From: an uncultured Anaerolineae bacterium
Lineage (GTDB): Bacteria > Chloroflexota > Anaerolineae > CG2-30-64-16
Reading direction: 5' to 3'
NCBI GenBank assembly: GCA_937124585.1
Contig: CAKZKT010000144.1
Coordinates: forward strand, 1 to 64,000
Length of the DNA: 64,000 nt
Part shown: positions 2,100 through 3,637 of the stretch, one piece after another
Numbering within the stretch: the stretch's first letter is position 1
Layout: the number at the start of each line of letters is the position of its first letter
The notes under the pieces: model-generated
The model's database searches: none
Seen by the model: only the letters and a program-made list of their open reading frames with translations
What the model was told of the DNA's origin: nothing
Position numbers and translations under genes: made by a program

Positions 2100-2861
2100 A
2101 TGAAGGAGACGTTGAAGCAAACCGTCGCCGCCGTGCGCGCTGCCTTCGGGAGCGCGACACCGCTGCTTGTCGCCTGGGTGATGGCGCTGCTGGCCATGCC
2201 TTTTGCCCAGTGGGCCGCGGGCTATCCGGGGTTGATCGCCGGGGTCATCGTGGGTGTCCTGCTACAGGTGCTGTTGGCCGTCTTCTTCCTGGCGCAAGCG
2301 GCCGGTGTCCGCCGCGCCGTCCTCACGGCCCTGGTCGTCATCCCCGTTGCCTGGGCCTCTGAGGCGTTGGGCTCCAAGACCGGCTTCCCGTTCGGCGCGT
2401 ACGACTACACGGCGGCGCTTCAGCCGCAACTGCTGGGCGTGCCGCTGCTCATCCCGCTGGCATGGCTCATGATGTTGCCGCCTGCGTGGGCCGTGGCGCA
2501 GCGGGTTACCGGCCAGGCTTCTGGCCCGGCCTTCGTGATCGTCAGCGCTTTGGCGTTTACGGCGTGGGATCTCTTCCTCGACCCGCAGATGGTCTACTGG
2601 GGCTTGTGGGCCTGGGAGGAGGGGGGCGCGTATTTTGGCATCCCGCTGGTCAACTTCGCCGGCTGGTTGCTGGTCTCCGGCCTGATCACGGTGCTGGCCC
2701 GTCCACCCGCCCTGCCCGAAAAGCCGCTCATCGTCATCTACGCGCTGACCTGGCTCATCGAGACCGTCGGCCAGATCGTGTTTTGGCGGCTTTACGGCCC
2801 GGCAGCCTTCGGCTTCGTCGGCATGGGGCTGTTCGTGTGGCTGGCGTGGCGCAGGCGCTGA
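2100..2861 (+). CDS. cruF: CruF-like carotenoid hydratase (carotenoid biosynthesis membrane protein)
   Basis: A 253-residue protein with about seven hydrophobic segments. The block EALGSKTGFPFGAYDYT and the later WDLFLDPQMVYWGLWAW are hallmarks of the DUF422/CruF family, which adds water across the terminal psi-end double bond of carotenoids (1',2'-hydratase in cyanobacterial myxoxanthophyll synthesis, bisanhydrobacterioruberin hydratase in haloarchaea). An integral membrane enzyme is expected. It lies directly upstream of plsY, a CruG-like glycosyltransferase and two CrtI-type desaturases, which supports a carotenoid role. The last 15 codons and the stop belong to a 48-bp direct repeat that is duplicated just downstream. 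Confidence 0.82.
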   Translation: MKETLKQTVAAVRAAFGSATPLLVAWVMALLAMPFAQWAAGYPGLIAGVIVGVLLQVLLAVFFLAQAAGVRRAVLTALVVIPVAWASEALGSKTGFPFGAYDYTAALQPQLLGVPLLIPLAWLMMLPPAWAVAQRVTGQASGPAFVIVSALAFTAWDLFLDPQMVYWGLWAWEEGGAYFGIPLVNFAGWLLVSGLITVLARPPALPEKPLIVIYALTWLIETVGQIVFWRLYGPAAFGFVGMGLFVWLAWRRR

Positions 2862-2912
2862 GGAGTCGGCATGGGGCTGTTCGTGTGGCTGGCGTGGCCC
2901 AGGCGCTGAGGA
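2817..2912 (+). repeat. 48-bp tandem duplication of the cruF 3' end
   Basis: Two adjacent 48-bp copies (2817-2864 and 2865-2912) begin GTCGGCATGGGGCTG and differ at one base (GGCGCAGG versus GGCCCAGG). Copy 1 encodes the last 15 residues and the stop of the CruF-like protein. Copy 2 lies after the stop and is untranslated in that frame. The near identity suggests a recent slippage or unequal-crossover event. Confidence 0.95.
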
Positions 2913-2926
2913 GTCGGGAGAAGGAG

Positions 2927-3038
2927 GATTCGCCGATTCGCCCATTCGCCCATTCGCCGATTCGCCCATTCGCCCATTCGCCCATTCGCCGATTCGCTGA
3001 CTCGCCCATTCGCTCATTCGCTCATTCGCTCATTCGCA
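2927..3038 (+). repeat. Fourteen-copy octamer array (SATTCGCY)n before plsY
   Basis: Fourteen consecutive 8-bp units of the form (G/C)ATTCGC(C/T) run without interruption; one unit carries an internal change (GACTCGCC), and the last unit ends on the A of the plsY ATG. The period is not a multiple of three, so every frame repeats each 24 bp and none contains a stop, which produces spurious ORFs rich in MGEWANGR or SPIRPFAH. An AAGGAGG motif at 2921-2927 immediately precedes the array. Similar octamer arrays are, from memory, scattered through Chloroflexota genomes; their function is not known to me. Confidence 0.95.
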
Positions 3039-3637
3039 TGACCGCACTTATCTGGACTCTCATCGGTTTCCTGTCCGGCTCCTTGCCTTTCTCCGTATGG
3101 CTAGGGAAGCTCGTGCTGCACACCGACATTCGCCGCTATGGCGACGGCAATCCCGGAGCGACCAACGTGTTTCGCGCCGGGAACTTCGGCGCCGGGATGC
3201 TGGCCGTGTTCCTGGACATGCTCAAAGGCGCTGCACCGGTGGCCCTGGCGCGCTACGTCTTCGACGTGACCGGCTGGGGCCTGGTGGCTGTGACGGTGGC
3301 GCCGATCCTGGGCCACGCGTTCTCGCCGTTCCTGCGCTTCCGTGGCGGCAAGGCGCTGGCCGCCGCCTTCGGCGCGTGGACCGCGCACACGGTGCCGTTC
3401 GGCCCCTTCGTCATGGGCTTCTCGGTGTTCGTCTTCCACAAGCTGCAGACGATCCCGGGCTGGGCCGTCATGGCTGCGCTGACGGTGCTGCTGGGCTTCC
3501 TCGTGCTCACCGCGGCGAGCTGGCCCCTGTTGGCTGCCTGGGCCGCGACGAGCGTGCTCCTGGCCTGGACCCATCGCAACGATCTGCGCCAACGGCCGGC
3601 GCTGCGGCCGGGCGTGCGAAAGTGGCTGGGGCGCTGA
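3038..3637 (+). CDS. plsY: glycerol-3-phosphate acyltransferase PlsY
   Basis: A 199-residue membrane protein matching the PlsY/YgiH family. PlsY transfers an acyl group from acyl-phosphate to the sn-1 position of glycerol-3-phosphate in the first step of phospholipid synthesis. Diagnostic motifs are FLSGSLPFSVWLGK at the N-terminus, RYGDGNPGATNVFRAGN and RFRGGKALAAAFG. The start is fixed by homology (MTALIWTLIGF); the longer ORF running in from 2462 is a read-through frame. No SD lies at normal distance, because the octamer array occupies that space and the nearest AAGGAGG is 110 bp upstream. It is the acyltransferase of the carotenoid block but is most simply a housekeeping enzyme. Confidence 0.92.
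   Translation: MTALIWTLIGFLSGSLPFSVWLGKLVLHTDIRRYGDGNPGATNVFRAGNFGAGMLAVFLDMLKGAAPVALARYVFDVTGWGLVAVTVAPILGHAFSPFLRFRGGKALAAAFGAWTAHTVPFGPFVMGFSVFVFHKLQTIPGWAVMAALTVLLGFLVLTAASWPLLAAWAATSVLLAWTHRNDLRQRPALRPGVRKWLGR

What the first reader, a model, noticed from the sequence alone, without database searches (positions are those of the whole stretch)
2921..3040. Octamer array appears to have been expanded between the plsY Shine-Dalgarno and its start codon
Seen: AAGGAGG at 2921-2927, then 14 octamers of (G/C)ATTCGC(C/T), then ATG. Collapsing the array to one unit gives AAGGAGG-ATTCGC-ATG, a normal ribosome binding site with 6-nt spacing. Inference: slippage amplified the spacer and moved the SD 110 bp away from an essential gene's start. 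The array has no stops in any frame, so translation initiated upstream could read into plsY. Copy number could tune expression, like a phase-variable spacer.
Basis: partly seen in the sequence, partly recalled or inferred. Interest (0 to 1): 0.6.

Follow-up and report, generated by a model that had tools for sequence, protein, structure and literature searches.

The report
Dispersed octamer microsatellite before plsY start
The 14-copy, 8-base repeat in front of the lipid-synthesis gene plsY is real, but it is one of many short repeats of the same kind scattered between genes in this bacterium and its relatives; here it has pushed apart two genes that in most relatives touch or overlap.

Summary
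The array is real: 2928-3037, 13.8 octamers (consensus ATTCGCCC), with AAGGAGG at 2921-2927 flush on its left and the plsY ATG at 3038 flush on its right. One claim is wrong: there is a TGA at 2998-3000, though not in the plsY frame. The array is not a private expansion of the plsY spacer. The same octamer occurs as arrays at about 14 other places in this genome and in 19 of 60 sampled relatives. Heavily affected Anaerolineae genomes carry many intergenic arrays of strictly 7- or 8-bp period with lineage-specific motifs. At orthologous sites arrays are present or absent, and copy number differs (cobT: 2 versus 14 units), so slippage growth is plausible. Arrays often abut gene boundaries, stop codons above all. 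In 10 of 11 array-free cruF-plsY pairs the genes overlap or lie within about 11 nt; the array, with a 48-bp duplication, opened a 176-nt gap here. Three of the 11 have a strong Shine-Dalgarno sequence at plsY, so the displaced AAGGAGG may once have been the plsY site; this is unproven. Copy-number tuning of plsY is untested. Best filed as an STRR-like intergenic microsatellite, with precedents in Chloroflexus, Nostoc, Xanthomonas and Beggiatoaceae.

The parts
2100..2861 (+). cruF-like carotenoid gene, upstream neighbour; its 3' end and stop (2859-2861) form the ancestral junction with plsY
   Evidence: Pfam Caroten_synth PF04240 5.7e-40; CruF NCBIfam models below cut-off
2817..2917 (+). 48-bp direct tandem duplication (2.1 copies) of the cruF 3' end including its stop codon; the second copy creates a 12-codon mini-ORF 2871-2909 (MGLFVWLAWPRR) preceded by GAGGAG
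   Evidence: TRF 98% match; sequence
2921..2927 (+). AAGGAGG, perfect Shine-Dalgarno-like heptamer; the first ATG/GTG/TTG after it in any frame is the plsY ATG 110 nt on
2928..3037 (+). octamer array, 13.8 units, consensus ATTCGCCC; one TGA at 2998-3000, not in the plsY frame
3038..3637 (+). plsY (glycerol-3-phosphate acyltransferase); the start is supported by homology (MTALIWTL; G007 MTAFIWTL, G002 MDALVWAL)
   Evidence: PF02660 9.8e-39; sole PF02660 match in the genome
2846..2848 (+). GTG in the plsY frame at the position homologous to the plsY ATG of relative G002, where plsY starts inside cruF; duplicated at 2894

Best explanation
The array is a local member of a dispersed class of intergenic microsatellites with a strict 7- or 8-bp period (STRR-like) that is very active in parts of the class Anaerolineae. 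Such arrays begin as one or two copies at a gene boundary, grow and shrink by slippage, and are kept out of coding DNA by selection, so they tend to fill the space between a stop and the next start. Here the array grew, together with a 48-bp duplication, in a junction where cruF and plsY touch or overlap in most relatives. The result is a 176-nt gap: stop-start coupling with cruF is lost, and any old SD lies 110 nt from the ATG. The most likely way plsY is still translated (inferred) is initiation at ATG 3038 by ribosomes that dock at AAGGAGG, or remain after cruF, and cross a leader that is poorly structured and has no other ATG, GTG or TTG. Shown: dispersal, period, intergenic bias, boundary abutment, presence/absence and copy-number differences at orthologous sites, and the overlapping state in relatives. 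Inferred: slippage as the engine, selection as the cause of the intergenic bias, and the route of plsY initiation.
For: Own genome: 57 matches of the three-unit pattern at about 15 places, reversed control 0. Relatives: 19 of 60 genomes positive, up to 721 matches in G006. Samples not chosen for arrays: G006 158 kb has 21 arrays of period 7-8, 20 intergenic, against 1 of period 6 and 2 of period 9, all in coding DNA; G430, another family, 143 kb has 24, 23 intergenic (that set includes the contig that holds its plsY); three control genomes, 272 kb, have 0. Orthologous sites in one genus with 88-90% identical flanks: array present, absent or of another motif. cobT-cobS: the conserved stop is followed by about 2 units in G006 and about 14 here, none in other relatives. 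Boundary abutment: antisense ATTCGC arrays end within 2 nt of a stop in 15 of 30 cases, expected 1.0; all 7/8-bp arrays pooled 24 of 127, expected 4.3. cruF-plsY overlap or lie within 11 nt in 10 of 11 array-free pairs. Leader less structured than shuffles, z +3.2. No other ATG, GTG or TTG after the SD. A separate family, G430, has a heptamer array flush against its own plsY ATG.
Against: No relative of the same genus was available, so the birth of this particular array is not seen. The ATTCGC motif recurs across genera and families, which pure independent slippage from random seeds does not explain easily; common seeds, ectopic copying or transfer may add to it. The sharp restriction to 7 and 8 bp is unexplained. 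Some arrays lie inside predicted genes (37 of 126 scored), and gene calls are from a simple home-made codon-usage caller. No expression data exist, so the translation route is inference.
Confidence: 0.78

Rival explanations
1. One reading: the plsY spacer itself was amplified by slippage, and unit number tunes plsY expression like a phase-variable spacer.
For: Both flanks of the array are flush (AAGGAGG on the left, ATG on the right), so one unit gives a normal spacing. AAGGAGG-5 nt-ATG exists at plsY of relative L341 and AGGAGG-7 nt-ATG at L333. Copy-number change at an orthologous site is seen at cobT. A repeat between promoter and start that affects expression by copy number is known in Moraxella UspA2 (cited in PMC4679880).
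Against: The same octamer is dispersed in the genome, so the event is not specific to plsY. Most relatives have overlapping genes without a strong SD. Beyond the first few units extra length should matter little if the SD is already out of reach. plsY is an unlikely phase-variable gene.
Confidence: 0.15
2. The arrays are binding sites for a translational or transcriptional regulator, as proposed for TAACTGA repeats in Beggiatoaceae, and plsY is one target.
For: Arrays sit next to starts and stops, mostly between co-directional genes. Several replace a recognisable SD (window, L011, L238). plsY of another family has an unrelated heptamer array flush with its ATG. The TAACTGA repeats have a similar position (PMC4679880).
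Against: Motifs differ between and within genomes; both orientations occur; an orthologous site can carry another motif or none; many abut stop codons rather than starts.
Confidence: 0.12
3. Translation starts upstream (GTG 2846 or 2894) and reads through the open array, giving PlsY an array-encoded N-terminal extension (SPIRPFAH repeats).
For: The plsY frame is open from 2462 through the array; GTG codons in that frame lie at 2837, 2846, 2885 and 2894; 2846 is homologous to the plsY ATG of G002.
Against: Homologues start at the equivalent of ATG 3038 with the first hydrophobic stretch following directly. With one of three frames closed by TGA, an open plsY frame is not remarkable. A long charged extension before the first membrane helix would be unusual.
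Confidence: 0.08
4. A reverse transcriptase of the DRT10 or telomerase type writes the arrays into the chromosome.
For: Strict unit length of 7-8 nt; DRT10 makes tandem repeats of a 9-nt unit from an RNA template (PMC12632851).
Against: The only reverse transcriptase domains found in this 99.8%-complete genome lie in a Cas1-linked locus and a DGR-like locus; G006 has a Cas1-linked one and one not assigned; G008 has arrays but no match. Dozens of motifs per genome would need dozens of templates.
Confidence: 0.03
5. Assembly artefact of a metagenome bin.
For: The genome is in 164 contigs; short-read assembly can miscount units.
Against: The array lies about 2.9 kb inside a long contig, is short enough for reads to span, contains point variants in order, and similar arrays recur in many independent assemblies.
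Confidence: 0.02

Closest known systems
Heptamer satellites (GATAGRA)n of Chloroflexus aurantiacus (PMC6749651)
   Same: Same phylum; one short-unit motif in arrays scattered over the genome.
   Different: Heptamer of another sequence; here octamers and heptamers of many motifs, compared across genera and with gene boundaries.
STRR heptamers of cyanobacteria and the GGGAATC / GGGGA(C/T)T repeats of Xanthomonas and Nostoc (PMC4692102)
   Same: Dispersed, mostly intergenic arrays of heptamers with degenerate positions; length differs between related genomes at the same site.
   Different: Those studied are G-rich and quadruplex-forming; this unit has no G run. Here 7- and 8-bp periods coexist with many motifs.
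TAACTGA direct repeats of Beggiatoaceae (PMC4679880)
   Same: Tandem units ending at or just before start codons, sometimes where an SD would be; also in front of presumably essential genes.
   Different: That motif has stop codons in all three frames and one dominant orientation near starts; this family abuts stops more than starts, in both orientations, with changing motifs.
Phase-variable repeats in 5' regions, e.g. Moraxella uspA2 AGAT repeats (cited in PMC4679880)
   Same: Repeat between promoter and start codon of a gene.
   Different: No evidence of variation in a population or of an expression effect here.

Membership tests
STRR-like dispersed short tandem repeats | Same short unit in arrays at many unrelated genomic sites | tested here: met
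   57 pattern matches at about 15 places in the own genome, control 0
STRR-like dispersed short tandem repeats | Unit length about 7-8 bp | tested here: met
   Period 8 here; periods 7 and 8 dominate in G006, G009, G430
STRR-like dispersed short tandem repeats | Mostly intergenic | tested here: met
   20 of 21 in an unbiased G006 sample, 23 of 24 in G430; 89 of 126 for the ATTCGC family in loci chosen for arrays
STRR-like dispersed short tandem repeats | Length and presence vary between relatives at the same site | tested here: met
   G006 versus G009 sites; cobT 2 versus 14 units
TAACTGA-type start-codon repeats | Most arrays end within a few nt of a start codon in forward orientation | tested here: not met
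   True for the window array by its homology-based start, but none of 46 scored sense-facing starts lies within 2 nt of an array; abutment is at stops
Phase-variable expression repeat | Unit number varies within a population | not testable with these tools
   No reads or strains available
Phase-variable expression repeat | Expression depends on unit number | not testable with these tools
   Needs reporter assay
DRT10 / telomerase-like repeat synthesis | Cognate reverse transcriptase with repeat template RNA in the genome | tested here: not met
   Only Cas1-linked and DGR-like RTs found in the own genome; no template RNA search was made

The most novel reading that the evidence does not exclude
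A specific activity in these bacteria, intrinsic to a polymerase or dedicated, generates tandem repeats of strictly 7-8 nt at gene boundaries with rapid motif turnover, and repeatedly rewires stop-start junctions (including plsY in two families) from coupled to independent translation.
Probability: 0.08. Interest if true: 0.75.

Novelty: new member of a known kind. Interest (0 to 1): 0.36.

Why it matters
It corrects a single-gene story: the plsY array is one symptom of a genome-wide microsatellite habit in uncultured Anaerolineae. These lineages are a natural test of two open questions: why bacterial microsatellites favour 7-8-bp units, and how genes stay expressed when a repeat separates the ribosome-binding site or a coupled stop from the start codon.

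Tried and rejected
RNA families at the locus: Rfam gives no match. Promoter or terminator in the junction: none. Stable hairpin bringing the SD to the ATG: rejected, since the leader folds less well than all 200 shuffles. Reverse transcriptase origin: the RT search gave only Cas1-linked and DGR-like enzymes in the own genome. A MITE seen beside a few arrays (GTATCYTCTCAATAATCCGGGG): only 4 of 49 copies lie near an array, so it is not the carrier. A protein scan for PlsY in genome contigs found nothing. The first Pfam/NCBIfam scan of plsY used a wrong frame and was repeated. A phylum-wide exact four-unit pattern survey found only the own genome and one other of 201: that motif is patchy and the stringent pattern misses variants.

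Full report
OBSERVATION. The sequence reads AAGGAGG (2921-2927), then 110 bp of octamers (2928-3037), then ATG (3038). Tandem Repeats Finder scores it 157 with period 8 and 13.8 copies. There are 14 hexamer cores, 13 ATTCGC and one ACTCGC. The statement that no frame has a stop is wrong: TGA lies at 2998-3000. The plsY frame is open. Between the AAGGAGG and the plsY ATG there is no ATG, GTG or TTG in any frame. Just upstream, 48 bp of the cruF 3' end are duplicated in tandem (2817-2917).

THE GENE. The product matches Pfam G3P_acyltransf (9.8e-39) and scores below the cut-off of the PlsY equivalog model (108.5 against 137.2 bits). It is the only PF02660 match in the 99.8%-complete genome, so it is probably the sole PlsY; essentiality is inferred. 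Its neighbours are carotenoid genes. Homologues support ATG 3038 as the start.

NOT A PRIVATE EXPANSION. A three-unit pattern of the same octamer has 57 matches in the own genome at about 15 places on some dozen contigs; the reversed control pattern has none. Among 60 relatives 19 are positive, G006 with 721 matches. A capped scan of named genomes returned mostly Chloroflexi MAGs and scattered others. A stringent four-unit pattern found only two of 201 genomes sampled across the phylum, so the motif is patchy.

A CLASS OF ARRAYS WITH PERIOD 7 OR 8. In stretches of G006 not chosen for arrays (158 kb), 21 arrays have period 7 or 8 and 20 are intergenic; periods 6 and 9 give 1 and 2, all in coding DNA. 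The motifs are many (TATTGGG, CCAATCTA, GGTGACAC, GAATCAGC, CTTGTCTA and others). The own genome is poorer: 5 in 361 kb. G430, of another family, has 24 in 143 kb, 23 intergenic, with yet other motifs; that sample includes the contig chosen for its plsY, and 12 of its 23 intergenic arrays have an adjacent inverted partner. Three control genomes, 272 kb, have none.

HOW THEY CHANGE. G006 and G009 share flanks of 88-90% identity at several sites (85% at one). One array is present in one species and absent in the other; one has 7 against at least 14 units (an N gap lies in it); one intergenic site has octamers in one species and other short repeats around a palindromic element in the other. After the conserved stop codon of cobT (PF02277, followed by cobS, PF02654) G006 has about two units and the own genome about fourteen, and other relatives none. 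This is what growth or loss by slippage at a boundary would give; direction is not shown.

POSITION. When an ATTCGC array is antisense to a gene whose stop faces it, the array edge lies within 2 nt of the stop, or overlaps it, in 15 of 30 cases (expected 1.0 if placed evenly in the gap); for sense arrays it is 5 of 37 (expected 1.6). For all 7/8-bp intergenic arrays in four genomes the pooled count is 24 of 127 against 4.3. In L203 and at cobT the stop itself is conserved in the relative, so the array follows a native stop there. Near starts, arrays usually leave room for an SD, as in L225, L229 and L217; in the window, L011 and L238 they do not. The window is unusual in having the AAGGAGG on the far side.

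THE cruF-plsY JUNCTION. Eleven array-free relatives have both genes side by side. In ten they overlap or are at most 11 nt apart; one has a 166-nt gap. Three have a strong SD before plsY: L341 AAGGAGG-5 nt-ATG, L333 AGGAGG-7 nt-ATG, and L336. Eight do not, among them G002, the nearest pair, where the plsY ATG lies inside cruF. So the tight junction is the likely ancestor, and the window's 176-nt gap (cruF stop 2861 to ATG 3038) is derived. The AAGGAGG could be the former plsY site, but no relative shows AAGGAGG-ATTCGC-ATG. In G004 an unrelated gene lies between the two. In G430, a different family, a heptamer array (GATTACC, six units) is flush against its own plsY ATG; among 50 plsY upstream regions only these two have arrays.

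MECHANISM. Shown: dispersal, strict period, intergenic position, boundary abutment, turnover, and the tight junction in relatives. Inferred: slippage as the engine, removal from coding DNA by selection, and loss of coupling for plsY. The leader is unusually unstructured (z +3.2, all 200 shuffles fold better), so a ribosome that docks at AAGGAGG would meet the plsY AUG as its first ATG/GTG/TTG. About 39% of genes in the sampled own genome have an SD of at least 5 nt near a start, against 6% for an internal control, so starts without an SD are common here. No regulatory role follows from these data.

LITERATURE. Chloroflexus aurantiacus has 22 satellites of a heptamer (PMC6749651). Xanthomonas and Nostoc have dispersed intergenic heptamers, and polymerase slippage related to the length of DNA held in the polymerase active site was proposed for their abundance (PMC4692102). 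TAACTGA heptamers in Beggiatoaceae end at start codons and a translational role was proposed (PMC4679880). DRT10 makes 9-nt tandem repeats in defence (PMC12632851), but the RTs found in the own genome are Cas1-linked or DGR-like.

VERDICT. A real array, ordinary for its lineage, of a known kind.

Noticed in passing
window:2817-2917: 48-bp tandem duplication of the cruF 3' end with its stop codon; the second copy forms a 12-codon mini-ORF (2871-2909) with GAGGAG in front.
   Followed up: partly
L342 (G430:C622): Heptamer array (GATTACC, 6 units) flush against the plsY ATG in another family of the class; upstream gene looks carotenoid-related by eye.
   Followed up: partly
G006 and G009 loci, e.g. 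L230:8681, L209:3142, L215:3154; also upstream of plsY in L063: MITE-like palindromic element with ends GTATCYTCTCAATAATCCGGGG, 49 matches in 462 kb of G006/G009, 2 in 438 kb of the own genome.
   Followed up: partly
L346, L349, L352, L357 (G430); L009, L010, L020 (own genome): Head-to-head inverted pairs of 7/8-bp arrays that would form long hairpins; 12 of 23 intergenic arrays in G430 have such a partner.
   Followed up: partly
L022:1679-1874: In-frame stretch of about 65 codons in a glycosyltransferase gene, built of imperfect repeats and missing from most relatives.
   Followed up: no
L015:2406-2449: Octamer array starting at the stop codon of cas1 in a locus with a Cas1-linked reverse transcriptase; the G006 Cas1 frame runs on into a different octamer-encoded repeat (L194).
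   Followed up: no
L064 (G002:C503 near 9288): plsY is split in two frames, a frameshift or assembly error; not mended.
   Followed up: no
window:780-2081: Predicted fusion of a DUF6992 domain and an alpha/beta hydrolase, upstream of cruF.
   Followed up: no
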